Assembly (NCBI GenBank): GCA_017882905.1
Contig: JADGOO010000078.1
Span: forward strand, 1 to 39,810
Reading direction: 5' to 3'
DNA: 39,810 nt
Origin: Acidimicrobiia bacterium
GTDB taxonomy: Bacteria; Actinomycetota; Acidimicrobiia; IMCC26256; PALSA-610
This document shows positions 2,865-34,991 of this stretch, one piece after another. Each line of letters starts with the position of its first letter. Position 1 is the stretch's first letter. The notes under the pieces were generated by a model that saw only the letters and a program-made list of their open reading frames with translations, was not told the DNA's origin and did no database searches. The translations under genes and the position numbers were made by a program.

Positions 2865-3758
2865 TTACAGAACAGCAGCGGTGCGGCGCTCGTCGGTGCG
2901 CTGGGCCTTGAGCTGCACGGGCTCGGGCTCGGCGTCGAGCCGGGCGCGGTACGAGGAGCTGGCGGCGACCTGCGCGTAGTAGGTGGCCTTGCGGCGGGCG
3001 ACCCGGCCGTTGGGGCGGGCTTCCTGGGTCACGAGCTCGGGCTCGAGCTGGGCGTTCATGCCGTCCTTGAGCAAGAGGAGGGCTTCGGCGCGCAGCTGGG
3101 AGACGCGGCTCTCCGACACGCCGAGCTCGTCAGCGAGGTCTTGCATCGAGCGCTCTTCGAAGAAGTAGCCGATGACGACCTGACGGAGGCGCTCGGGGAG
3201 TGCGGCGACGGCGTCGGTGAGCACGGCGCGCCGTTCGCGGGCGACGATCGCCTCTTCGGGGCTGTCGCTGTCGGACGCGAGGAACGATTCGGCGTCGCCG
3301 TCGAGGACGAGCGACTCGTAGTTGAGGACGGTGGCGCGATGCACGTCGTCCACGAGCTTTTGCACCGACTCGGGCTCCACGTCGAGGGCCTTGGCGACCT
3401 CGTCGTTGGTCGGGGTGCGACCGAGCTTGGCGGTGAGCTCTTCGGTGGTCTGGCTCATGCTGCGGGCACGGGCACGCACGGAGCGGCTGGCCCAGTCGCG
3501 GCCGCGCAGCTCGTCGAGCAGCGCGCCGCGGATGCGGGTGGATGCGAATCGGTCGAACGCGATGCCGCGCTCCGGATCGAAGCTGCGCGCCGCTTGGGCG
3601 AGACCGAGCATGCCGGCCGAGACCAGGTCGTTGCGCGAGACGTGGCTCGGGACGCGGTGCGCCACTTCGGCGACCACGTAGCCCACCAGCGGCAGGTGGT
3701 CGTGCACCAGCTGGTGCTCGTACGCTGCCCGAACCGTGTCGATCTTCTGCGACTTCAC
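2865..3758 (-). CDS. fliA: FliA/WhiG-family RNA polymerase sigma-28 factor
   Basis: A 297-residue group 3 sigma factor that directs RNA polymerase to flagellar (FliA/SigD) or sporulation (WhiG) promoters. Region 2 spans about residues 16-95 (DLVSAGMLGLAQAARSFDP, FDRFASTRIRGALLDELRG). Region 3 is about 96-150 and region 4 about 185-231 (ERSMQDLADELGVSESRVSQ). A basic and acidic tail of about 66 residues follows region 4, where FliA proteins normally stop. GTG 3758 is preceded by GGGGAGG with 5-nt spacing. Neighbouring flagellar genes favour a motility role. An RsiG-like anti-sigma candidate is encoded at 31371. FlgM, the usual anti-sigma of FliA, is not seen in the window. Confidence 0.93.
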   Translation of the reverse strand: MKSQKIDTVRAAYEHQLVHDHLPLVGYVVAEVAHRVPSHVSRNDLVSAGMLGLAQAARSFDPERGIAFDRFASTRIRGALLDELRGRDWASRSVRARARSMSQTTEELTAKLGRTPTNDEVAKALDVEPESVQKLVDDVHRATVLNYESLVLDGDAESFLASDSDSPEEAIVARERRAVLTDAVAALPERLRQVVIGYFFEERSMQDLADELGVSESRVSQLRAEALLLLKDGMNAQLEPELVTQEARPNGRVARRKATYYAQVAASSSYRARLDAEPEPVQLKAQRTDERRTAAVL

Positions 3759-3852: not shown

Positions 3853-4596
3853 GTGGTGTTCGCTCGGCGGCGGGGTGTCGGCCCGGTACGCTCGCCGACC
3901 GGCCGCAGCGAACGGTGGGAGGCTGATCTGGCAACCGACGCGACCGGCATCGACACGGTGGTGGTGCTCGACGAGCTCGCGCTCGTCCGCCACGGGGTGC
4001 GTGCCGCGCTGGAGCCGATGGGTCTCGAGATCGTGGCGGAGACGCATTCGCTGCGTGATGCCTTGGCGTTCGCCGGTTCGGCTCGCCCCACGCTCGTCGT
4101 GGTGGGTGTGGCCGCCGGCTGCGATCCGTGCGATGCGGTGCGGCGCATGAAGGCCCTCCCCGGCTCGCCACTGTTGGTGGTGCTGGTGCCGCCGCGCTCG
4201 CACTCCGAGATCGGTGCGCTGATCGGGGCGGGCGCCGATGCCGTGTTGCCGCGGGGCCTGCGACCCGAGGAGCTGGTCGAGGCCACGCAGCGTGTCCTCG
4301 ACGGCGAGCAGGTGGTGGCACCGGTGTTGCAGCGGTCGCTGGTCGGGTCGGTGGGTCCGGTGGCCGACGGCGGGCCGGTGAGCTCGGAGGTGCCGGCCGA
4401 TGCCGGTCTGTCGGCCCGTGAGCGGGAGGTGCTCACGTTCCTCGCTGCAGGCCGCACCAATCGTGAGATCGCCGCCGAGCTGTCGCTGTCGCTCGCGACG
4501 GTGAAGTCGCATCTCGTGCACGTCTACGCCAAGCTGGGCGTTCGCGATCGGGCCGACGCCGTGCATGCTGCGGTCGTGCGCGGCTTGTTGGCGTGA
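3853..4596 (+). CDS. LuxR/NarL-type regulator with a receiver lacking the phospho-acceptor
   Basis: The N-terminal half aligns with a response-regulator receiver (IDTVVVLDELALVRHGVRAA, later GADAVLPRGLRPEEL). The C-terminal LuxR helix-turn-helix begins near residue 185 (LSAREREVLTFLAAGRTNRE, LSLATVKSHLVHVYAKLGV). The phospho-acceptor position is Gly85 (RPTLVVVGVAAG), the acidic pair is Asp40-Glu41, and the conserved lysine is replaced by arginine in LPRG. Normal aspartate phosphorylation is therefore unlikely. GTG 3853 has no ribosome site and lies upstream of a TACGCT box (3887-3892). CTG 3928, 5 nt after GGGAGG, is an alternative start giving a receiver of normal length. Divergent from sigma-28 and 1-nt coupled to crcB. 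The target is unknown. Confidence 0.85.
   Translation: MVFARRRGVGPVRSPTGRSERWEADLATDATGIDTVVVLDELALVRHGVRAALEPMGLEIVAETHSLRDALAFAGSARPTLVVVGVAAGCDPCDAVRRMKALPGSPLLVVLVPPRSHSEIGALIGAGADAVLPRGLRPEELVEATQRVLDGEQVVAPVLQRSLVGSVGPVADGGPVSSEVPADAGLSAREREVLTFLAAGRTNREIAAELSLSLATVKSHLVHVYAKLGVRDRADAVHAAVVRGLLA
3887..3892 (+). promoter_or_regulatory. Candidate -10 box inside the annotated 5' end of the LuxR gene
   Basis: TACGCT fits the TANNNT actinobacterial -10 form and matches the boxes before proC and the SDR at 22187. A transcript starting about 7 nt later would begin inside the GTG-3853 reading and would carry GGGAGG at 3917-3922 before CTG 3928. No -35 is recognisable. Confidence 0.35.
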
Positions 4597-5203: not shown

Positions 5204-5561
5204 GTTGGGCGTGGCGCTGGCCGGCGCGGTGGGGGCGCCGGCGCGCTTCGTCCTCGAAGCGTGGGTGCAGCGCCGCACGGCGGGCCGTTGGCCCATCGGC
5301 ACCCTCACGATCAACGTCACTGGCTCGCTGCTGCTCGGGTTCCTCACCGGCTTGGCGCTGTACCACGCTCTGCCGAGCACGCCCAAGACGATCCTCGGTA
5401 CCGGATTCTGCGGCGCGTACACCACCTTTTCGACGTTCGCCTACGAGACGGTCCGTCTGGCCGAGGCCGGCGAGGGCCGCGGCGCCGCGCGCAACCTGAT
5501 CGCCAGTCTGGTCCTGCCCCCGTTGGCGGCCGCGCTCGGTCTGGCCCTGGCGGCCATCTAA
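5193..5561 (+). CDS. crcB: CrcB/Fluc fluoride channel subunit 2
   Basis: A 122-residue second Fluc subunit with GAPARFVLE, LTINVTGSLLLGF and an intact GAYTTFSTF box. Positive charges lie in loop 1 (VQRRTAGRWP) and loop 3 (EGRGAARN), the reverse of the first subunit, so both ends should face outside. Paired crcB genes with opposite topology are known to form obligate antiparallel heterodimers, and this pair fits that. ATG 5193 is the only start possible after the in-frame stop at 5163. It lacks a clear ribosome site and overlaps the tandem repeat. Confidence 0.92.
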   Translation: MGVLLGVALAGAVGAPARFVLEAWVQRRTAGRWPIGTLTINVTGSLLLGFLTGLALYHALPSTPKTILGTGFCGAYTTFSTFAYETVRLAEAGEGRGAARNLIASLVLPPLAAALGLALAAI

Positions 5562-5631
5562 CGGGGCTTCGGGGGTCGTTCGGCACACGGCGCGCTCCTC
5601 GACCCGTCTCCTTCACGATTCCCGAGCCCCG

Positions 5632-5639
5632 GCCGATGA
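5632..5639 (+). promoter_or_regulatory. Candidate sigma-28 -10 element before flgN
   Basis: GCCGATGA matches the FliA/WhiG -10 consensus GCCGATAA at 7 of 8 positions and lies 35 bp before the flgN start. The expected TAAA box 15 nt upstream is not present (TTCA at 5612-5615 is the nearest), so this is tentative. It would make flgN-flgK-flgL-fliW a sigma-28 transcript. Confidence 0.35.
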
Positions 5640-5674
5640 GAAACCGGCGGGCTGCCCGGGGATGGAGGAGAGGG

Positions 5675-6169
5675 ATGCAGAACGAGGCGAACGAGGTCTC
5701 GAACATCCTGTGGCGCGAGCGGCAGCTGCTCGAGCTGCTCGTGTTCAAGCTCGAAGAGGAACAGCTCGTCCTCGCAGCCGGTCGCACGCGCTGGTTGGCC
5801 TTCGCGACGCGCGAGGTCGAGACCGTGCTCGAAGAGATCAAGCGGCTCGAGCTCGACCGTGCGGTCCACGTGCAAGGCCTGGCGCGTGCGCTCTCGCTCG
5901 GCACCACGCCGTCGTTGCGCGAGCTGATGGAACAGGCACCCACGCCGTGGGATCGCATCTTCGCGGAGCACCGGCGCGCACTGCTCGAGCTCGCACAGGA
6001 GATCGACAGTGTCGCCAAGTCGAATCGCGACATGCTGACGCGCGGGCAGCTCGCCACGCGCGAAGCGCTCGCGTCGCTCGGTGAGATCGAGCTCGACGTG
6101 TACACGCCGAACGGCAATGCGCAAGCGGATCGTCCGGCCGCGTTGCGCCTCATCGACGAGGCCATGTGA
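5675..6169 (+). CDS. flgN: FlgN-like flagellar export chaperone
   Basis: A 164-residue, mostly helical, charged protein rich in Glu, Leu and Arg (VSNILWRERQLLELLVFKLE near the N-terminus). This fits the FlgN family, chaperones that deliver the hook-junction proteins FlgK and FlgL to the flagellar export gate. Sequence conservation in FlgN is low. The call rests on size, helical pattern, the WRERQLLELLVFKLEEEQ-type N-end and position directly before flgK. ATG 5675 follows GGAGGAGAGGG. An upstream in-frame ATG at 5636 has no ribosome site. Translation of flgK starts 37 bp later. Confidence 0.8.
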   Translation: MQNEANEVSNILWRERQLLELLVFKLEEEQLVLAAGRTRWLAFATREVETVLEEIKRLELDRAVHVQGLARALSLGTTPSLRELMEQAPTPWDRIFAEHRRALLELAQEIDSVAKSNRDMLTRGQLATREALASLGEIELDVYTPNGNAQADRPAALRLIDEAM

Positions 6170-6206
6170 CGACGGTGTACCGGTACCCGAGCGGGAGCGC
6201 AGTGCG

Positions 6207-7895
6207 GTGAGCGAGTTCGGCGCGCTCAACATCGCGCTCACCGGTATCCAAGCGCAACGTCGCGCGCTCGAGATCACGGGCCACAACGTCACGAACGCGA
6301 ACACCGACGGGTACTCGCGCCAGACGATCGACCTGCAGGCCATCGGTGGAGCCACGATCCCCGGCATCTTTGCGCGGGCGTCCGGTCAGGGCCAGGGCGT
6401 CACCGTCGCAGGGTTCACGCGCTACGCCGATCAGTTCTTGCAGATCCGCGCGGCACTCGAGCACGGCTCGCAAGCCGAGCTCACGCAGGTGCAAGGCACG
6501 TTGACTGCGCTCGAGAACCTGTTCGCCGAGCCGTCCGACCAATCGATCGGCAAGGGCCTCTCCGACTTCTGGTCGAGCTGGGGCGACCTCGCGAACCACC
6601 CCGACGACCCGGCGTCACGCGCGCAGCTCCTGGAGCGCGCGAACACGCTGTCGTCCACCTTCAACAGCATCTCGGGTCAGCTCACGCAGATGCGCCTCGA
6701 TTCGATCGCGCAGCTCAGCTCCACCGTGAGCGACATCAACACGATGGCCGGCAACCTCGCGCGGCTCAATTCCGCGATCCAGACAGCGGAGACGGCCGGC
6801 ACCGATGCCAACGATCTCAAGGACCAACGCGACCTGCTCGCTGACCAGCTGGCCACCAAGGTGGGTGGCACCGTGCGCGCCGGTCAGTACGACTCGGTGA
6901 ACGTGTTCGTGAACGGCACCGCGCTCGTCAACCAGGGCAACTCCGAACCGATGAGCCTCGACATGTCGGGGCCGAGCGCGGTGGTTCGTTGGACACACGA
7001 CAACTATCCGGCGACGATCACGTCGGGAGATGCCGGTGGCCTGCTCGACGTGATCAACGCTCGCATCCCCACGTATCAGGGCAACCTCGACGTGATCGCG
7101 AACCAGCTCCGCGACGACGTGAACGGCGTCGCCGGCGCGATGGGCGGATCGCTGGCCACGACCGCGCAGAACCAGAGCGCGTCGGGCAACCTCCAGTTCC
7201 AGGTGTCGCTCGGCGGGGGCGCGTTCGCCACGGCCACCGTCGCCGGCGCCGACTGGTCGGGCGTGGGTGGCGCGGCGGCGTTGCAGACCGCGCTCCAGAA
7301 CGCCGTCGACACCGCCATCGGAGCCGGTTCGGCCACCGTCACCGTCACAGGCGGCAACGGCTCACCGCTCGCTGTGTCGCTCGTCCCCACGGGGAGCAAC
7401 ACGATCCAAGTGCAAGCCGTATCCGGGAACGCGGGCTTCTCCACGCTGCTCGGTTCCACCGCTGTCGGCCTTGACGGTGTGGGCGGACGTCAGTTCTTCA
7501 GCGGCAACGGCGCGGCCGGTCTCACGGTCGCGAGCGACGTGGCCGGCAACCCGAGCGCGATCGCGGCGGGTGCGTCCGGTGCAGGACCCCTCGACGGGAG
7601 CGTCGCGCTCAACCTCGCCGACGTGGGCACGACCACCACGGGTGCCGACGCCAAGTACCGCTCGTTCATCGTCAATCTCGGCGTCGACTCACAAGACGCC
7701 ACGCAGCGCCTCAACATCCAGAACTCGACGGTGCAGCAGGTCGACGGCGCCCGCCAGTCGTACTCGGGCGTCAACACCGACGAAGAGATGGTGTCGATGG
7801 TGGAGTACCAGCACGCCTACGAAGCGTCGGCTCGGTTCCTCACCACCGTCGACACCGTGCTCGACACGCTCATCAATCGCACCGGCATGCCGTAG
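6207..7895 (+). CDS. flgK: Flagellar hook-filament junction protein FlgK (HAP1)
   Basis: A 562-residue hook-associated protein forming the first junction ring between hook and filament. The N-terminus has the rod/hook signature ALEITGHNVTNANTDGYSRQ. The C-terminus has the matching D0 helix SGVNTDEEMVSMVEYQHAYE followed by ASARFLTTVDTVLDTLINRT. The middle (about residues 310-480) is Ala/Gly/Thr/Ser-rich and variable, as usual. GTG 6207 is chosen because FlgK homologues begin directly with SEFGALNIAL; GGGAG lies 9 nt upstream. The upstream extension in this frame overlaps flgN and is a shadow. Followed by flgL after 14 bp. Confidence 0.95.
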   Translation: MSEFGALNIALTGIQAQRRALEITGHNVTNANTDGYSRQTIDLQAIGGATIPGIFARASGQGQGVTVAGFTRYADQFLQIRAALEHGSQAELTQVQGTLTALENLFAEPSDQSIGKGLSDFWSSWGDLANHPDDPASRAQLLERANTLSSTFNSISGQLTQMRLDSIAQLSSTVSDINTMAGNLARLNSAIQTAETAGTDANDLKDQRDLLADQLATKVGGTVRAGQYDSVNVFVNGTALVNQGNSEPMSLDMSGPSAVVRWTHDNYPATITSGDAGGLLDVINARIPTYQGNLDVIANQLRDDVNGVAGAMGGSLATTAQNQSASGNLQFQVSLGGGAFATATVAGADWSGVGGAAALQTALQNAVDTAIGAGSATVTVTGGNGSPLAVSLVPTGSNTIQVQAVSGNAGFSTLLGSTAVGLDGVGGRQFFSGNGAAGLTVASDVAGNPSAIAAGASGAGPLDGSVALNLADVGTTTTGADAKYRSFIVNLGVDSQDATQRLNIQNSTVQQVDGARQSYSGVNTDEEMVSMVEYQHAYEASARFLTTVDTVLDTLINRTGMP

Positions 7896-7909
7896 GAGCA
7901 CTGGCACCC

Positions 7910-8800
7910 ATGGTCTCATCCGACTACCGCATCACGCAGCAGGGCATGTCGAACCGTGCCGTCGCGAACATGCAGCAGACACTCCAGAAGCTGCAGCAGC
8001 TCCAGAGCGAGGTCGCGTCGAACAAGCGCATCCAGCGCCCTTCCGACGACCCGGTCGGCACCATCAGCGCCCTGCGCCTGCGCAACAACATCGATCAGAG
8101 CGGCCAGATCGGGCGCAACATCACCGATGCCACGGGATGGCTCGGCACGGCCGACGACGCCTTGAACTCGGTGGTCCAGCAGGTCCAGCACATCCGTGAC
8201 CTCGCCCTCCAGGCCCAGAACGGCACACTCGGCGCATCTGAGCTCGGGGCCATCGCCGATGAGATGGACAGCACCCGCTCGTCCCTGATCGACCTGGCCA
8301 ACAGCAAGTACGGCAACCGGGCGGTGTTCGCAGGCACCGCAACGGGTAGCGCGTACGACACCAGCGGCAACTACATGGGTCACTCGGCCGTGATCGAGCG
8401 CACCGTCGGCCCGGGGACTCGTGTGCAGATCAACGTCAACGGCGATGCGGTGTTCGGCCCGAACGGCAGCGACCTGTTCAGCGCGGTCGCGCAGCTCTCG
8501 TCCGATGTTCGGGCGGGTAACACTGCGGCGATCGCGGCCGATATGCAAACGCTTGATGCGCATACGCAGACGGTGCAATCGAACCTCGGCGCGATCGGTG
8601 CCCGCGAGCAGGGCGTCACCGCGATGAAGAACCGCAACGACTCCAGCGCGATCTCGTTGCAATCCGGGCTGTCCGACGTCGAGGACGTGGACTTGCCCAA
8701 AGCACTGATGGACATGCAGATACAGCAAACGGCGTATCAAGCGGCGCTCGCCACGACTGCCCGTGTGATCCAGCCGTCCCTGGTTGACTTCCTCAAGTGA
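7910..8800 (+). CDS. flgL: Flagellar hook-filament junction protein FlgL (HAP3)
   Basis: A 296-residue HAP3 homologue that joins FlgK to the flagellin filament. The N-terminal flagellin-like helix shows QLQSEVASNKRIQRPSDDPV, the RI.RPSDDP motif of FlgL. Central D1 helices and a C-terminal LPKALMDMQIQQTAYQAALA helix complete the fold. Length is typical. ATG 7910 lies shortly after the flgK stop, which itself carries TAGGAG as a distant ribosome site, so coupling to flgK is likely. fliW starts 7 bp after the stop. Confidence 0.95.
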   Translation: MVSSDYRITQQGMSNRAVANMQQTLQKLQQLQSEVASNKRIQRPSDDPVGTISALRLRNNIDQSGQIGRNITDATGWLGTADDALNSVVQQVQHIRDLALQAQNGTLGASELGAIADEMDSTRSSLIDLANSKYGNRAVFAGTATGSAYDTSGNYMGHSAVIERTVGPGTRVQINVNGDAVFGPNGSDLFSAVAQLSSDVRAGNTAAIAADMQTLDAHTQTVQSNLGAIGAREQGVTAMKNRNDSSAISLQSGLSDVEDVDLPKALMDMQIQQTAYQAALATTARVIQPSLVDFLK

Positions 8801-8807
8801 GAGAGCG

Positions 8808-9230
8808 ATGACTCAGACAAGCTTCTCCGACGCCGACGTCGCCACCGTCGAGCTGCACTTCGCGGCCGGTTTGCCCGGCTTCCCGGCCGCGCACCACTTC
8901 GCGCTCGGCACCTGGGGTGGGCCCGACAGCCCGTTCTTGCTGATGAGCTCGCTCGAAGACCCCGACGTCGGCTTCGTGGTCATCTCACCGTTCGTCTTCT
9001 ATCCCGACTACGAGTTCGACCTCGATGACGCGATCGCGCAGCGGCTCGGCCTCGTCGAGCCCTCCGATGTCGTGGTGCTCTGCATCGTCACGCTGCAGGA
9101 CCATCCGGCCGACGCGACCGTCAACCTCATGGGGCCGATCGTCGTCAACCGCAACAACGGCGAAGCATGCCAAGCCGTGCAGCCGCACAGCGCCTACGAA
9201 GTCAGAGCGCCGCTCGCGCGAGTGGCGTAG
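8808..9230 (+). CDS. fliW: FliW, CsrA antagonist and flagellin-binding assembly factor
   Basis: A 140-residue FliW homologue. In Bacillus, FliW is held by cytoplasmic flagellin; when flagellin is exported, free FliW binds CsrA and relieves repression of flagellin translation. Supporting segments are VELHFAAGLPGFPAAHHFAL, LMSSLEDPDVGFVVISPFVF, and ATVNLMGPIVVNRNNGEACQ, all in family order. ATG 8808 is the start given by FliW alignment. It comes 7 bp after flgL and has only a short purine stretch (gagagcg). csrA follows after 227 bp. Confidence 0.94.
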   Translation: MTQTSFSDADVATVELHFAAGLPGFPAAHHFALGTWGGPDSPFLLMSSLEDPDVGFVVISPFVFYPDYEFDLDDAIAQRLGLVEPSDVVVLCIVTLQDHPADATVNLMGPIVVNRNNGEACQAVQPHSAYEVRAPLARVA

Positions 9231-9410
9231 CGCGTTCTCCACCCCGCTCGGCCTGCGCCTCGCGCCCCAGGGCGTCTGGTCGCGGTGCACTGCAGTGCTT
9301 CGGCACTCGCACGCGCGTACGGCCGCACGTACGGCCGTGCTTCGCCCGGTGGCGGGCGCCGTCCGGGCAGCTTCGACACTCGTTCACGTGCGCTCGTGCG
9401 TGCGCACCTC

Positions 9411-9416
9411 TATGCT
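9411..9416 (+). promoter_or_regulatory. csrA: Candidate -10 box for csrA
   Basis: TATGCT fits TANNNT and would start transcription near 9423, giving csrA a leader of about 35 nt that includes the CACGGAGG motif at 9441-9448. No convincing -35 is seen. It would let csrA be expressed apart from the flgN-fliW transcript. Confidence 0.4.
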
Positions 9417-9457
9417 TGCCGATGGCCCCACGGTGGCCACCACGGAGGGAGGACCCC

Positions 9458-9718
9458 GTGCTCGTCCTAACGAGGCGCGCAAATCAAAGCATCATGATCG
9501 GTCATGACATCGTCGTGACCGTTCTCGAGGTGCGAGGCGATCAAGTGCGGTTGGGCATTCGAGCCCCGCGCTCGATCGACGTCCACCGCGAAGAGGTGTT
9601 CGCCAACCTGCAGCAGGCCAACCAGGCTGCGGCGCGTTCGGCGCGCGATCTGACCGGCAACGACTCGGCGCTGCCGAGCGCACCTGCGCCCACGCCCGCT
9701 GCGGCCGACGGCGCGTAG
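9458..9718 (+). CDS. csrA: CsrA translational regulator
   Basis: An 86-residue CsrA/RsmA RNA-binding protein, a domain-swapped dimer that binds GGA motifs near ribosome sites. The core VLVLTRRANQSIMIGHDIVV, LEVRGDQVRLGIRAP and VHREEVFANLQQANQ is complete, including the conserved Arg of VHREE. A Pro/Ala-rich tail of about 25 residues extends past the usual 61-65. GTG 9458 follows GGAGGGAGG at 9444-9452 and is the start shared by all CsrA proteins. The ribosome site lies within CACGGAGG (9441-9448), so CsrA may repress itself. The stop is 3 bp from the convergent ald stop. Confidence 0.96.
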   Translation: MLVLTRRANQSIMIGHDIVVTVLEVRGDQVRLGIRAPRSIDVHREEVFANLQQANQAAARSARDLTGNDSALPSAPAPTPAAADGA

Positions 9719-30202: not shown

Positions 30203-30853
30203 GTGGTGTCCGAACCGATGCCCGAACCCACCACCCTGGCGATGTTCCCGTTGGGCACGGTGTTGCTCCCGGGTGGCGTGCTGCCGCTCCACGTGTTCGA
30301 GCCGCGCTACCGCATGATGGTGCGCGCGGTGCTCGGCGGCGACGGCGAGCTCGGCATCGTTCTGATCGAGCGGGGCCACGAGGTCGGCGGCGGCGACACG
30401 CGGTTCCCGGTTGCATGTCTGGCGCGCGTCGCGCAAGCCCAAGAGCTCCCCGACGGCCGCTTCGCGATCGCGGTGGTTGGGCTCGAGCCGGTCGACGTGA
30501 TCGAGTGGCTCCCCGACGATCCGTACCCGATGGCGCGCGTCGCCCGGCGAGTGGTGCCGGCGATCGATCCGGATCTGCGAGCGCGAGCGCGAGACGCGCT
30601 CGAGGCCAAGCTGCACGAGCTGGTCGACGCGCTCGGCGCGGCGCACGGCGATGCCGGCGAGCCCGAGGAGCCCGTGCTGCCGAGCGACGACGACGTGGCG
30701 GCCTGGATGCTCGGCGAGGCGCTCGCCCTCGGTCCGCTCGATCGCCAGCGACTGCTGGCGGCACCTGATCCGGTGGCGCGCCTCGTGCTCCTCGGCGAGG
30801 TCGTCGACGATCGGATCCTGGTGGCGCGCGCGAGCGGCATCGACGGCGAGTAG
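30203..30853 (+). CDS. Lon N-terminal (LON substrate-binding) domain protein
   Basis: A 216-residue protein containing the PUA-like Lon N-terminal domain (FPLGTVLLPGGVLPLHVFEP then RYRMMVRAVLGGDGELGIVL) without ATPase or protease domains. Stand-alone LON proteins are common in actinobacteria; their role is unknown but the domain binds peptides in Lon. GTG 30203 is taken, with GTG 30206 and ATG 30218 as alternatives. Downstream are a short gene and a MoaD-like gene on the same strand. Confidence 0.85.
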   Translation: MVSEPMPEPTTLAMFPLGTVLLPGGVLPLHVFEPRYRMMVRAVLGGDGELGIVLIERGHEVGGGDTRFPVACLARVAQAQELPDGRFAIAVVGLEPVDVIEWLPDDPYPMARVARRVVPAIDPDLRARARDALEAKLHELVDALGAAHGDAGEPEEPVLPSDDDVAAWMLGEALALGPLDRQRLLAAPDPVARLVLLGEVVDDRILVARASGIDGE

Positions 30854-30865
30854 CTCCCCGCTGCG

Positions 30866-30871
30866 TATCGT
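30866..30871 (+). promoter_or_regulatory. Candidate -10 box before a 64-codon gene
   Basis: TATCGT ends 7 nt before ATG 30879, again with no ribosome site between, as for the SET and SirB1-like genes. Confidence 0.4.
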
Positions 30872-30878
30872 GGTGGCG

Positions 30879-31073
30879 ATGTCGAACGTCAGCCCCGAGC
30901 CGGGCTCCCAACCATGGGCCGCGCCCAGCCGCCCGTCCCAACCGGCGCCCGAGACCGCGCCGGCCGAGGTGCCGTTGCCTGCGCTGGCCGACGAGCGCCG
31001 CATGCTCGGCGAGCTCGAGGCTGCGGTCGCGGCGATCGACGCCGAGCTGAGCACGCTCGACTCGCCGCGCTGA
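30879..31073 (+). CDS. Small hypothetical protein, 64 residues
   Basis: A short protein with a Pro/Ala/Ser-rich first half and a helical second half (LADERRMLGELEAAVAAIDA) likely to form a short coiled coil. I do not recognise it. Support is its position between two real genes on the same strand, third-position GC like its neighbours, and a TATCGT box 7 nt before ATG 30879. It could be a cofactor or partner of the LON or MoaD proteins, but nothing shows this. Confidence 0.6.
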   Translation: MSNVSPEPGSQPWAAPSRPSQPAPETAPAEVPLPALADERRMLGELEAAVAAIDAELSTLDSPR

Positions 31074-31086
31074 ACCGGGTCAGCTG

Positions 31087-31332
31087 ATGGCGCGCGTCAC
31101 TCTGCGCCTGTTCGCCTCGGCCCGCGAGGCCGCCGGACGATCGAGCGACGAGCTCGACGCGGCGCACTTGCACGAGCTGTTGGCGCTCGCCTGCGACCGA
31201 TACGGCGCCGGGTTCGCCGCGGTGCTCGCCACGGCACGGGTGTGGGTCAACGGCGACGAGCCGGCGCACAGTGGACTGACCCTGACCGACGGCGACGAGG
31301 TTGCCGTCCTGCCGCCGGTGTCGGGCGGCTAG
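31087..31332 (+). CDS. moaD: MoaD/ThiS-like sulfur-carrier protein
   Basis: An 81-residue beta-grasp protein ending in Gly-Gly (VLPPVSGG), the thiocarboxylated tail of MoaD and ThiS. The segment VNGDEPAHSGLTLTDGDEVA and the N-terminal VTLRLFASAREAAGR favour MoaD, the small subunit of molybdopterin synthase. No moaE or other cofactor gene is in the window. ATG 31087 lies 13 bp after the preceding small gene. Confidence 0.88.
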   Translation: MARVTLRLFASAREAAGRSSDELDAAHLHELLALACDRYGAGFAAVLATARVWVNGDEPAHSGLTLTDGDEVAVLPPVSGG

Positions 31333-31370
31333 CTGCTCAACCAGCCGTCGTGGCCGCCGATGGGAACCCG

Positions 31371-31937
31371 ATGAACGCTGCACCGGGGGTACCCTTCGCG
31401 ACTGAGGCCAGCACCATCCGGAGGTGTCCCATCGACCGCATCGAGGCGCTTGTCGCCGACGATTACACCGTGAACCTCGGGGGTCGCGACGAGGCCGTGC
31501 TGCGCACGATGAAGGCCGATGTCGCGAGCGTCGAGAACACCGTGTCGTACTACCGGCGCCTCGCGCAGGGCCGCATGGAGATCCTCGCCGCGGAGCAGGA
31601 ACGGCGCGCCACCGGCGGTTCGGTTGCCGATCTCGTGGCCAAGCTCCCCCAGATCCTCGGTAGTGATCACGGCCGATCCAGCGCGGCCAACACACGAGCC
31701 GGCGCGCCCGCCGAGATGACGATCGAGTCGCTCGAGTGGCGCGATGGTCGTGAGCGGCTCGTCACCGACGACGCGTCGTTGGCCTCGTTGCCGGTGCTCG
31801 CCGACGGCGCGCTCGCCACGGTGATCACCGAGCTCACCGACTTCGAGCGTGAGCTGTCGGAGTATCGCCGGCGCTTGCATCACACACTCGACGCGATCGA
31901 CCACGAGCTCGCGCGCCGGACCGTCGCCGACGCCTGA
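31371..31937 (+). CDS. rsiG: RsiG-like c-di-GMP-binding anti-sigma factor
   Basis: A 188-residue helical protein. Two helices carry the RsiG c-di-GMP signature E(X)3S(X)2R(X)3Q(X)3D. The first is E55-S59-R62-Q66-E70 (VENTVSYYRRLAQGRMEIL) and the second E159-S163-R166-H170-D174 (ERELSEYRRRLHHTLDAID). Spacing is exact; the changes are D to E and Q to H. In Streptomyces, RsiG loaded with c-di-GMP binds and silences WhiG, a FliA-family sigma. A FliA/WhiG sigma is encoded at 2865. ATG 31371 lacks a ribosome site. GGAGG at 31420-31424 stands 6 nt before codon 21 (ATC 31431), which may be the true start. Confidence 0.85.
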   Translation: MNAAPGVPFATEASTIRRCPIDRIEALVADDYTVNLGGRDEAVLRTMKADVASVENTVSYYRRLAQGRMEILAAEQERRATGGSVADLVAKLPQILGSDHGRSSAANTRAGAPAEMTIESLEWRDGRERLVTDDASLASLPVLADGALATVITELTDFERELSEYRRRLHHTLDAIDHELARRTVADA

Positions 31938-31945
31938 GTGCCGTC

Positions 31946-32296
31946 GTGGCCGAATCGATCGAGCGCCTGCGCGAGCTGGGCGACTTCATCCGTGATCAGC
32001 GCCGTCATTCCCGGCTGTCGCTGCGCAAGCTCTCGGAGCTCGCGGGGATCTCGAACCCGTACCTGAGCCAGATCGAACGCGGGCTGCGCAAGCCGTCGGC
32101 GGAGATCCTCCAAGGCATCGCACGGGGCTTGGCGATCTCGGCCGAGACGCTGTACGAGCGGGCCGGACTGCTCGAACAGCGGGGCGACCACCTGGATCTC
32201 GTCGCCGAGATCTCCCGCGACACCACGATCTCCGAGCGCCAGAAAGACGCGCTCATCGCCATCTACCGCTCGTTCCAGGCCGAGTCGGCCCGGTAG
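31946..32296 (+). CDS. XRE-family HTH regulator, Rv0474-like
   Basis: A 116-residue regulator with a Cro/C1 helix-turn-helix at about residues 10-68 (GDFIRDQRRHSRLSLRKLSE, ISNPYLSQIERGLRKPSAEI). It closely resembles the mycobacterial Rv0474 type. A short C-terminal helical part (RQKDALIAIYRSFQAESAR) may mediate dimerisation. GTG 31946 starts 8 bp after the RsiG stop, so the two are probably co-transcribed and both may act in motility or surface control. Target sites unknown. Confidence 0.88.
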   Translation: MAESIERLRELGDFIRDQRRHSRLSLRKLSELAGISNPYLSQIERGLRKPSAEILQGIARGLAISAETLYERAGLLEQRGDHLDLVAEISRDTTISERQKDALIAIYRSFQAESAR

Positions 32297-32348
32297 CGGG
32301 CCGGGCCCCGTGTCGCGTGGCGCTGGGCGATCTGCCGGTGGCGGGCGT

Positions 32349-32354
32349 TAGCAT
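32349..32354 (+). promoter_or_regulatory. Candidate -10 box before mshA
   Basis: TAGCAT ends 8 nt before ATG 32363, with no ribosome site between. It is close to the spacing of leaderless actinobacterial mRNAs. Confidence 0.4.
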
Positions 32355-32362
32355 CGACGCAT

Positions 32363-33580
32363 ATGTCCGTTCGCCGGGTTGCCGCGATCAGCGTGCACAC
32401 CTCGCCCCTCCACCAGCCCGGTCACGGCGACGGCGGCGGAATGAACGTCTACGTGGCGTCGCTCGCGTCGGCGCTCGCGCACGCCGGCGTCGACTGCGAC
32501 GTGTTCGTGCGCCGCGACAGTCCCGACCTGCCGTCGGTGCTCACGGTCGAGCCCGGGTTCCGTGTCGTGCACATTGACGCCGGTCCCGCCGAGCCGCTGC
32601 CGAAGGATGAGCTCGTCGGTCACCTCGATGAGTTCGTGGCCAACGCGGGCGTCGTGTTGGAGCGCGGCGGCCACGAGGTGCTCCACGCGCACTACTGGAT
32701 GTCGGGCGCGGTCGCGCACCGGTTGAAGCACGAGCTCGACCGACCGCTCGTCACCACGTTCCACACGCTCGGTGCGGTGAAGGGTGCCGCGGGTTATCAC
32801 GAGTCGGCGTCGCGTCTGTCGGTGGAGCGCGATGTCGTGCGCTGCAGCGACTTGATCCTCGCGTCCACACCCGACGAGAGCGATCAGCTCCGTGAGCTCT
32901 ACGGCGCCGAGCCCGATCGCGTCGAAGTGGTCCCGCCCGGTGTCGACCATCGTCTCTTCCACGACCAGGACCGCACGCGCGACCGCGAGTCACTCGGGCT
33001 CAACCACCGCAAGGTGGTGTTGTTCGCGGGCCGGATCCAGCCGCTCAAGGGTGCCGGGCTCGCGATCGAGGCGATCGGCGAGCTCGACGACCCGACCGTG
33101 TTGCTGTTGATCGTCGGCGGACCGAGCGGCGCCGATGGCGAGCGCGAGCTCGAGCGTCTGCGTGCGCTCGTGGCCGAACGCGGGCTGGAGGAGCAGGTGC
33201 GCTTCATGAGCGCCGTTCCCCACGCGCAGCTGGCGCGCTACTACCGCGCCGCCGACGTGTGCATCGTGCCGTCGCACACGGAGTCGTTCGGTCTCGTGGC
33301 GCTCGAAGCCGCCGCCTGTGGAGCACCCGTCGTGGCCGCGGCCGTCGATGGCTTGCGCTCCCTGGTCGACGACGGCGAGACGGGCTTCTTGGTCGAGGGC
33401 CGCGATCCGGCCGAATACGCGGCCCCGCTGCGCAAGCTCCTCGGCGACGCCGACCTCGCGGCCCACATGGGCGCCACGGCCGCCGCCCGGGCCCGGCGGT
33501 ACTCGTGGAGCATCACGGCCGCCCGGCTGCGCCGCCTCTACGGCGACCTCGCCGCGCGCGAGCCGGTTCGGTGCCGCTGA
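32363..33580 (+). CDS. mshA: D-inositol-3-phosphate glycosyltransferase, MshA-like (GT4)
   Basis: A 405-residue GT-B glycosyltransferase. MshA makes the first intermediate of mycothiol from UDP-GlcNAc and inositol-3-phosphate. Diagnostic are HTSPLHQPGHGDGGGMNVYV at the N-terminus, HAHYWMSGAVAHRLKHEL, the donor-site FAGRIQPLKGAGLAIEAI and the EX7E-like ESFGLVALEAAACGAPVVAA. The following ybjN-like gene is the neighbour also found after mshA in mycobacteria, which supports the call. ATG 32363. Other mycothiol genes are not in the window. Confidence 0.9.
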   Translation: MSVRRVAAISVHTSPLHQPGHGDGGGMNVYVASLASALAHAGVDCDVFVRRDSPDLPSVLTVEPGFRVVHIDAGPAEPLPKDELVGHLDEFVANAGVVLERGGHEVLHAHYWMSGAVAHRLKHELDRPLVTTFHTLGAVKGAAGYHESASRLSVERDVVRCSDLILASTPDESDQLRELYGAEPDRVEVVPPGVDHRLFHDQDRTRDRESLGLNHRKVVLFAGRIQPLKGAGLAIEAIGELDDPTVLLLIVGGPSGADGERELERLRALVAERGLEEQVRFMSAVPHAQLARYYRAADVCIVPSHTESFGLVALEAAACGAPVVAAAVDGLRSLVDDGETGFLVEGRDPAEYAAPLRKLLGDADLAAHMGATAAARARRYSWSITAARLRRLYGDLAAREPVRCR

Positions 33581-34047
33581 GCGACGCCGACGCCGCGGCG
33601 CCCGATCCGGCGGCTCTCGAGGCCGCGCTCGCGCTGCTCCACCGGCACCTCGAAGGCCCGGTGGCCGCGGCCGAGTGGGTCCAGGCCGTGGAGTTCGACG
33701 CCTCGATCCCGCGCTTCTACGTGCGCTTCGGGTGCGACGGCCGCGACGCCGCCACGATCTACCTCGAACCGAAGCAACGGTCGCTGCACTACGAGGTGTA
33801 CTTCCTGCCCGACCCGCCGGCCGGCCACGCCGAGCTCTACGGGATGCTGCTGCGCGCCAACCACCACACGCTCGGGGCGCACTTCTCGATCGGTCCTGAC
33901 GACGATCTCTACCTCGTCGGGCGGATCCTCTTGGAGCACCTCGACGAGCCGGCGCTCGACCGGATCCTCGGCGAGCTGTACGCACTCACCGAGCGCTGGT
34001 TCAGCGTGGCGGTCGGTTGGTTGCGCGCGCCGCGCCGCCCGGCTTGA
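33571..34047 (+). CDS. YbjN-domain protein
   Basis: A 158-residue YbjN/CesT-type protein (segments PRFYVRFGCDGRDAATIYLE, YEVYFLPDPPAGHAELYGML, HFSIGPDDDLYLVGRILLEH). The fold resembles type III secretion chaperones; the cellular role is unknown. GTG 33571 overlaps the mshA stop by 10 bp, giving the same order as Rv0486-Rv0487 in mycobacteria and implying co-translation with mshA. Confidence 0.87.
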   Translation: MPLSDADAAAPDPAALEAALALLHRHLEGPVAAAEWVQAVEFDASIPRFYVRFGCDGRDAATIYLEPKQRSLHYEVYFLPDPPAGHAELYGMLLRANHHTLGAHFSIGPDDDLYLVGRILLEHLDEPALDRILGELYALTERWFSVAVGWLRAPRRPA

Positions 34048-34175
34048 TCTTGCATGTCAAGTTGTGTCAAGATGTCTGAAGCGGGCGGAAGGTGCCGTAC
34101 GGACGGTCGGGGAAGCTGCCCGAGCGGCGCCTTCCGCCTGCGCCCAGATCCCGGTGCGCCCACGATCGGTGTCGG

Positions 34176-34181
34176 TACGCT
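34176..34181 (+). promoter_or_regulatory. Candidate -10 box before proC
   Basis: TACGCT ends 6 nt before GTG 34188, with no ribosome site between. It predicts a leaderless proC mRNA. Confidence 0.45.
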
Positions 34182-34187
34182 ACGGCC

Positions 34188-34991
34188 GTGACGAACGTGG
34201 CGGTCCTGGGCGGTGGCCGCATGGGCAGCGCCCTCGTGGGCGGCCTGCGCGACGCCGGCTTCGAGCCCGACTCCCTGCGCGTGGCCGAGACTGACCCGGA
34301 GCGCCGGCGCGTGGTCGAGACCGAGCTGGCGGGCATCCGGGTGGTGCCGTCGGCGTCGTGGGCCGTGGCCGATGCCGAGGTCGTGGTGGTGGCGGTGAAG
34401 CCCGCCGACGTCGGCGCCCTGCTCGAGAGCTGCCTCGAAGCGCTCGCGGCCGACGCCCTGGTGCTGTCGATCGCCGCCGGCGTGCCGATCGCCGAGCTCG
34501 AACAGCACGCTCCCCGCCGCCCCGTCGTGCGCGCCATGCCGAACACGCCCGCGGTCGTCCGTCTCGGCGCCTCGGCGATCGCGCCGGGCGCCCACGCCAC
34601 CGAGGTCCACCTGCAGCTCGCCGAGCAGCTGCTCGGCGCAGTGGGCACGGTGGTCCGCGTCCCCGAGTCGTTGCTCGACGCGGTGACCGGTCTGTCGGGC
34701 TCCGGACCCGCCTACGTGTTCCTCGTCGCCGAAGCCCTGATCGAAGCCGGCGTGCTCGCCGGCCTGCCGCGCGACACCGCCGATGCGCTGGTGCGCCAGA
34801 CGCTGCTCGGCGCCGCGACGTTGCTCGCCGACGGTGGCGAACGGCCCGAATCGCTGCGCGCTGCTGTCACCTCGCCCGGCGGCACCACCGCGGCCGGCTT
34901 GGCCGTGCTGGAAGGCCGTGCGGTGCGCAGCGCCTTCCTCGATGCGGTCGGCGCCGCCACGCGGCGTTCGAAGGAGCTCGGCGCAAGCTGA
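34188..34991 (+). CDS. proC: Pyrroline-5-carboxylate reductase
   Basis: A 267-residue enzyme for the last step of proline synthesis (NADPH-dependent reduction of pyrroline-5-carboxylate). The Rossmann motif is VAVLGGGRMGSALVGGLRDA. Then come VVVVAVKPADVGALLE, VRAMPNTPAVVRLGASAI and the family signature around GLSGSGPAYVFLVAEALIEA and AVTSPGGTTAAGLAVLE. Length is typical. GTG 34188 matches family N-termini. In mycobacteria proC is likewise followed by a small HTH gene. Confidence 0.96.
   Translation: MTNVAVLGGGRMGSALVGGLRDAGFEPDSLRVAETDPERRRVVETELAGIRVVPSASWAVADAEVVVVAVKPADVGALLESCLEALAADALVLSIAAGVPIAELEQHAPRRPVVRAMPNTPAVVRLGASAIAPGAHATEVHLQLAEQLLGAVGTVVRVPESLLDAVTGLSGSGPAYVFLVAEALIEAGVLAGLPRDTADALVRQTLLGAATLLADGGERPESLRAAVTSPGGTTAAGLAVLEGRAVRSAFLDAVGAATRRSKELGAS

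What the first reader, a model, noticed from the sequence alone, without database searches (positions are those of the whole stretch)
31371..31937. RsiG-like anti-sigma factor in a flagellated actinobacterium: a possible c-di-GMP gate on sigma-28 motility
Seen: two helices with E-S-R-Q-E (residues 55-70) and E-S-R-H-D (159-174) in exactly the spacing of the RsiG signature E(X)3S(X)2R(X)3Q(X)3D. The window also encodes a FliA/WhiG-family sigma (2865-3758) and flagellar genes but no FlgM. Known: Streptomyces RsiG with c-di-GMP silences WhiG, which now serves sporulation. Inference: here the same switch would control flagellar transcription directly, linking c-di-GMP to motility at the sigma factor. 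The D-to-E and Q-to-H changes may alter ligand number or affinity.
Basis: partly seen in the sequence, partly recalled or inferred. Interest (0 to 1): 0.85.

Follow-up and report, generated by a model that had tools for sequence, protein, structure and literature searches.

The report
Ordinary RsiG; its sigma lies elsewhere
The gene is a genuine RsiG, a known protein that, when loaded with the signal molecule c-di-GMP, holds a sigma factor inactive, but its likely partner is a WhiG sigma factor encoded elsewhere in this genome and not the flagellar sigma factor seen in the window, so the proposed direct switch on motility is not supported.

Summary
The gene at 31371-31937 (+) is a real twin-motif RsiG: Pfam PF22802 at 2.4e-20, S. 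venezuelae RsiG (6PFJ/6PFV) as best match by sequence and by predicted fold, and both motifs where stated. ESRQ[D/E] + ESRHD is normal across the class Acidimicrobiia, where RsiG is already reported. The inferred partner is probably wrong. The window sigma (2865-3758, minus strand) is a divergent flagellar-cluster sigma that lacks all three residues with which WhiG touches c-di-GMP (G/A/E for K/G/R). The same genome encodes a full WhiG on contig C91 (passes the WhiG equivalog cut-off; K/G/R intact). Across 61 genomes RsiG accompanies WhiG, in non-flagellates too, while the window-type sigma accompanies flagella. The rsiG neighbourhood (MoaD-rsiG-XRE-glycosyltransferase-proC) is class-wide and independent of flagella. 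There is no FlgM, and 35 GGDEF and 21 EAL matches; FlgM loss in later actinobacterial classes is already published. Whether RsiG-WhiG acts on flagella indirectly remains open: consensus promoters gave no signal. New member of a known kind, modest interest.

The parts
31371..31937 (+). rsiG: twin-motif c-di-GMP-dependent anti-sigma factor (188 aa from ATG; exact start unproven)
31533..31580 (+). motif 1, E(X)3S(X)2R(X)3Q(X)3E, residues 55-70 on predicted helix 41-81
31845..31892 (+). motif 2, E(X)3S(X)2R(X)3H(X)3D, residues 159-174 on predicted helix 145-187
31087..31332 (+). MoaD/ThiS-family protein, conserved upstream neighbour of rsiG across the class
31946..32296 (+). XRE-family HTH regulator, conserved downstream neighbour of rsiG
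32363..33580 (+). family 4 glycosyltransferase, conserved neighbour
2865..3758 (-). flagellar-cluster FliA/WhiG-family sigma; lacks the K/G/R c-di-GMP contacts of WhiG; probably not the RsiG partner
5261..9718 (+). flagellar genes flgN, flgK, flgL, fliW, csrA

Best explanation
The gene encodes an orthologue of Streptomyces RsiG, inherited within Acidimicrobiia. Its two long helices form an antiparallel coiled-coil with one motif each (predicted here), which by homology binds a c-di-GMP dimer; the loaded protein sequesters the WhiG orthologue encoded on contig C91 of the same genome, so high c-di-GMP keeps the WhiG regulon off (inferred). The sigma in the window is a separate, divergent flagellar sigma that RsiG probably does not bind. 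What WhiG transcribes in this organism is not known.
For: RsiG identity: Pfam 2.4e-20, PDB 6pfj_T; AlphaFold model pLDDT 86 with helices 41-81 and 145-187, whose top Foldseek matches are S. venezuelae RsiG chains. Motif residues nearly invariant in 53 homologues: S, R, Q (motif 1) and E, S, R (motif 2) invariant. C91 WhiG: 278.7 bits to FliA_WhiG, passes NCBIfam WhiG equivalog at 361 against a cut-off of 343, where the window sigma scores 177.5; 9.9e-94 to S. venezuelae WhiG. Residues aligned to WhiG K57/G61/R62, the c-di-GMP contacts named in PMC8325347: KGR in C91 WhiG, and in 42 of 44 WhiG genes (KSR in 2); none of the three in 18 of 18 readable window-type sigmas of the order. Tree: two clades separated by a long, supported branch, Streptomyces WhiG with the C91 clade. 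Co-occurrence over 61 genomes: RsiG x WhiG p=0.004; window-type sigma x flagella p=4e-11; RsiG x flagella p=0.09. 36 genomes without detected flagellar genes carry rsiG, and rsiG neighbours are the same in flagellates and non-flagellates. c-di-GMP enzymes: 35 GGDEF and 21 EAL matches.
Against: No binding or complex structure could be tested. The three WhiG contacts are a small part of a mostly hydrophobic interface, so their loss does not strictly exclude binding to the flagellar sigma. The RsiG x WhiG association rests on few absences, some of them in incomplete genomes, and shared ancestry is not corrected for. rsiG and the flagellar sigma lie within about 20-35 kb on the same contig in at least six other genomes.
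Confidence: 0.82

Rival explanations
1. One reading: RsiG with c-di-GMP directly silences the flagellar sigma encoded at 2865-3758, replacing FlgM.
For: Same family of sigma factors; no FlgM; rsiG and this sigma are linked within about 20-35 kb in several flagellated relatives; every genome with flagellar genes in the sample has rsiG.
Against: A better WhiG exists; the window sigma lost K57/G61/R62, with R to E reversing charge; rsiG occurs in 36 genomes without detected flagellar genes, with the same neighbours, so the linkage is not specific to motility.
Confidence: 0.08
2. Indirect gate: RsiG-c-di-GMP holds the C91 WhiG, and WhiG transcribes flagellar operons or the flagellar sigma gene, so c-di-GMP still controls motility transcription one step up.
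For: WhiG belongs to the flagellar sigma clade and shares its promoter type (PMC8325347); WhiG-like sigmas drive flagella and pili in Actinoplanes (PMC8325347); a motility role for WhiG in simple motile actinobacteria was suggested earlier (PMC4255298); one 2-mismatch consensus match lies just before flhA (C172:19418).
Against: The consensus is not enriched in the genome (22 matches against 20 control), not found before the flagellar sigma gene across 18 genomes (mean score 7.67 observed, 7.63 shuffled), and mostly not before flagellin genes; most RsiG-WhiG genomes have no detected flagella.
Confidence: 0.25
3. RsiG-WhiG controls something other than flagella here, such as type IV pili or c-di-GMP enzymes, as suggested for Rubrobacter.
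For: The switch is kept in members of the class without detected flagellar genes; Rubrobacter precedent (PMC8325347).
Against: No target was identified here; the promoter search was uninformative.
Confidence: 0.5

Closest known systems
Streptomyces venezuelae RsiG (PDB 6PFJ, 6PFV)
   Same: Twin-motif single chain, antiparallel coiled-coil with E(X)3S(X)2R(X)3[Q/H](X)3[D/E] on both helices; best match by sequence and predicted fold
   Different: Motif 1 ends in E instead of D and motif 2 has H at the Q position; in published homologues H is usual in motif 1. Host is a flagellated uncultured Acidimicrobiia and not a sporulating mycelial organism
Rubrobacter radiotolerans RsiG (PDB 7LQ2-7LQ4)
   Same: Same ligand motif; non-sporulating unicellular host
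   Different: Single-motif homodimer; the window protein has two motifs in one chain; weak sequence match (0.02-0.03)
FlgM anti-sigma-28
   Different: Different family; no FlgM match in this genome

Membership tests
RsiG | Match to the curated RsiG family model | tested here: met
   PF22802 72.4 bits against cut-off 27, two stretches
RsiG | Two E(X)3S(X)2R(X)3[Q/H](X)3D motifs | tested here: met
   ESRQE and ESRHD with exact spacing; the last residue of motif 1 is E, as in 22 of 53 homologues
RsiG | Antiparallel coiled-coil of the two motif helices | tested here: met
   AlphaFold model helices 41-81 and 145-187, top Foldseek matches 6pfv_T, 6pfv_B, 6pfj_T; prediction only
RsiG | Binds c-di-GMP | not testable with these tools
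   needs purified protein
RsiG | A WhiG partner in the same genome | tested here: met
   C91 WhiG, equivalog cut-off passed
WhiG (window sigma 2865-3758) | NCBIfam WhiG equivalog cut-off (343 bits) | tested here: not met
   177.5 bits
WhiG (window sigma 2865-3758) | c-di-GMP-contacting residues K57, G61, R62 | tested here: not met
   G, A, E
FlgM-controlled flagellar sigma system | flgM gene | tested here: not met
   no PF04316 match in the genome; controls positive

The most novel reading that the evidence does not exclude
In flagellated Acidimicrobiia, where FlgM is missing and two FliA/WhiG-family sigmas coexist, RsiG-c-di-GMP acts on WhiG above the flagellar sigma (or on both sigmas), making c-di-GMP a transcriptional gate on motility in a lineage where only the pilus and sporulation versions of the switch have been described.
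Probability: 0.25. Interest if true: 0.55.

Novelty: new member of a known kind. Interest (0 to 1): 0.3.

Why it matters
RsiG-WhiG is described as the only known sigma/anti-sigma pair targeted by c-di-GMP (PMC8325347), and its role before sporulation is still being worked out. Flagellated Acidimicrobiia carry RsiG, WhiG and, separately, a flagellar sigma without a known anti-sigma, so they are suitable organisms to ask what the switch controlled ancestrally and what restrains flagellar transcription without FlgM.

Tried and rejected
A first scan of named genomes with the single RsiG protein found nothing; an alignment query found 80 loci. Promoter consensus searches (TAAA-N15-GCCGATAA) gave no exact hit, 1 with one mismatch and 22 with up to two against 20 in the control, and nothing convincing upstream of flagellin or the flagellar sigma, so the regulon could not be assigned. 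The idea that D-to-E and Q-to-H are special to this protein was rejected: they are class-wide. In the tree run the group labels were assigned wrongly by my script (zero-padding), so its group table is not used; the topology is. The complex of RsiG with either sigma and c-di-GMP could not be predicted because the tool folds single chains.

Full report
OBSERVATION. The ORF at 31371-31937 (+) encodes 188 residues. Residues 55-70 and 159-174 hold the motifs ESRQE and ESRHD in the RsiG spacing; none of 100,000 shuffles of the protein gave two such motifs. Pfam RsiG (PF22802) matches at 2.4e-20 in two stretches, and S. venezuelae RsiG (6pfj_T) is the best solved match at 3e-9, aligned over residues 25-183. 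An AlphaFold model built on 53 homologues (mean pLDDT 86.1) has two long helices, 41-81 and 145-187, each with one motif; the four top Foldseek matches, and the only ones with high probability, are S. venezuelae RsiG chains. The protein is an RsiG.

THE SIGMA IN THE WINDOW. The sigma at 2865-3758 is on the minus strand. It passes the FliA_WhiG subfamily cut-off narrowly (197.9 against 189.6) and fails the WhiG equivalog cut-off (177.5 against 343). It lies near flagellar genes: flgN, flgK, flgL, fliW and csrA at 5.3-9.7 kb and a flagellin start at the left window edge. In relatives, sigmas of this type lie next to flagellin genes.

A SECOND, BETTER WhiG. The genome (4.36 Mb, 259 contigs, listed as 100% complete) has a stronger match on contig C91, 278.7 bits. 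That protein passes the WhiG equivalog cut-off (361 against 343) and matches S. venezuelae WhiG at 9.9e-94, against about 2e-41 for the window sigma. It lies next to a tyrosine recombinase gene and a gene with a ChlI domain.

RESIDUES THAT TOUCH c-di-GMP. [quoted passage not shown] In the alignment made here, C91 WhiG has K, G, R; of 44 WhiG genes of this class, 42 have KGR and 2 have KSR. The window sigma has G, A, E, and none of 18 readable sigmas of its type in the order keeps any of the three; a more distant one (G060) keeps only K. The FliA of 6PMI aligned at the same place reads R, L, R, so G61 in particular marks WhiG. The tree separates the two sigma types by a long branch with 100/97 support, Streptomyces WhiG falling with the C91 type; the group labels of that run were faulty and only the topology is used.

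DISTRIBUTION. Among 61 genomes (own plus 60 relatives), RsiG is found in 54, FlhA in 16, flagellin or FlhA in 18. RsiG and WhiG are associated (both 53, RsiG only 1, WhiG only 4, neither 3; p=0.004); the window-type sigma and flagella are strongly associated (17/3/1/40, p=4e-11); RsiG and flagella are not significantly so (18/36/0/7, p=0.09). These counts are not corrected for shared ancestry and several genomes are incomplete. Named relatives are Acidimicrobiia, nearly all uncultured.

NEIGHBOURHOOD. MoaD-rsiG-XRE regulator-glycosyltransferase-proC, often with a LON-domain gene before and a SAM-dependent adenosyltransferase gene after, is found, whole or in part, across nearly all of about 100 loci examined, including the complete genome of IMCC26256. 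The distance of about 20-35 kb between rsiG and the flagellar sigma in several genomes is therefore not evidence of a functional pair, though it is not explained either.

MOTIF VARIANTS. Across 53 homologues motif 1 ends in D (31) or E (22), and motif 2 has H in 46 and F in 7 at the Q position. PMC8325347 reports H in motif 1 of many twin-motif RsiGs and in Conexibacter woesei RsiG, which binds c-di-GMP. The substitutions are the normal state of the class.

c-di-GMP AND FlgM. The genome has 35 GGDEF and 21 EAL matches and no FlgM match. Loss of FlgM in the later actinobacterial classes is published (PMC10746217; that Acidimicrobiia is one of those classes is my reading of its class order), and its absence in WhiG-bearing actinobacteria was noted in 2013 (PMC4255298), together with the suggestion that WhiG may have served dispersal and motility in simple actinobacteria. 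PMC8325347 already lists twin-motif RsiG in 3 of 4 Acidimicrobiales.

PROMOTERS. The consensus TAAA-N15-GCCGATAA is not enriched in this genome (22 matches at up to two mismatches, 20 in the control) and not detectable before the flagellar sigma gene in 18 genomes or before most flagellin genes. This is a weak test in a G+C-rich genome and leaves the WhiG regulon undefined.

CONCLUSION. Shown: an RsiG orthologue, a WhiG orthologue elsewhere in the genome, a separate flagellar sigma without WhiG's c-di-GMP contacts. Inferred: RsiG with c-di-GMP sequesters the C91 WhiG. Not supported: direct control of the window's flagellar sigma. Open: whether WhiG reaches flagellar genes indirectly, and what restrains the flagellar sigma in the absence of FlgM.

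Noticed in passing
window 2865-3758 (-) and relatives L077-L093: Flagellated Acidimicrobiia have a flagellar-cluster sigma distinct from WhiG, with no FlgM found and no known anti-sigma; a LuxR-type regulator (3853-4596) is divergently transcribed beside it.
   Followed up: partly
window 30203-34991: The order LON domain-MoaD-rsiG-XRE regulator-glycosyltransferase-proC is conserved across the class; the XRE gene mostly follows rsiG directly. Its relation to RsiG is unknown.
   Followed up: partly
G001, G030, G031: Three genomes keep the flagellar-type sigma although no FlhA or flagellin was found.
   Followed up: no
L066, L072, L073: A few RsiG homologues lack the last acidic residue of one motif (G or A), which might indicate altered ligand binding.
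   Followed up: no
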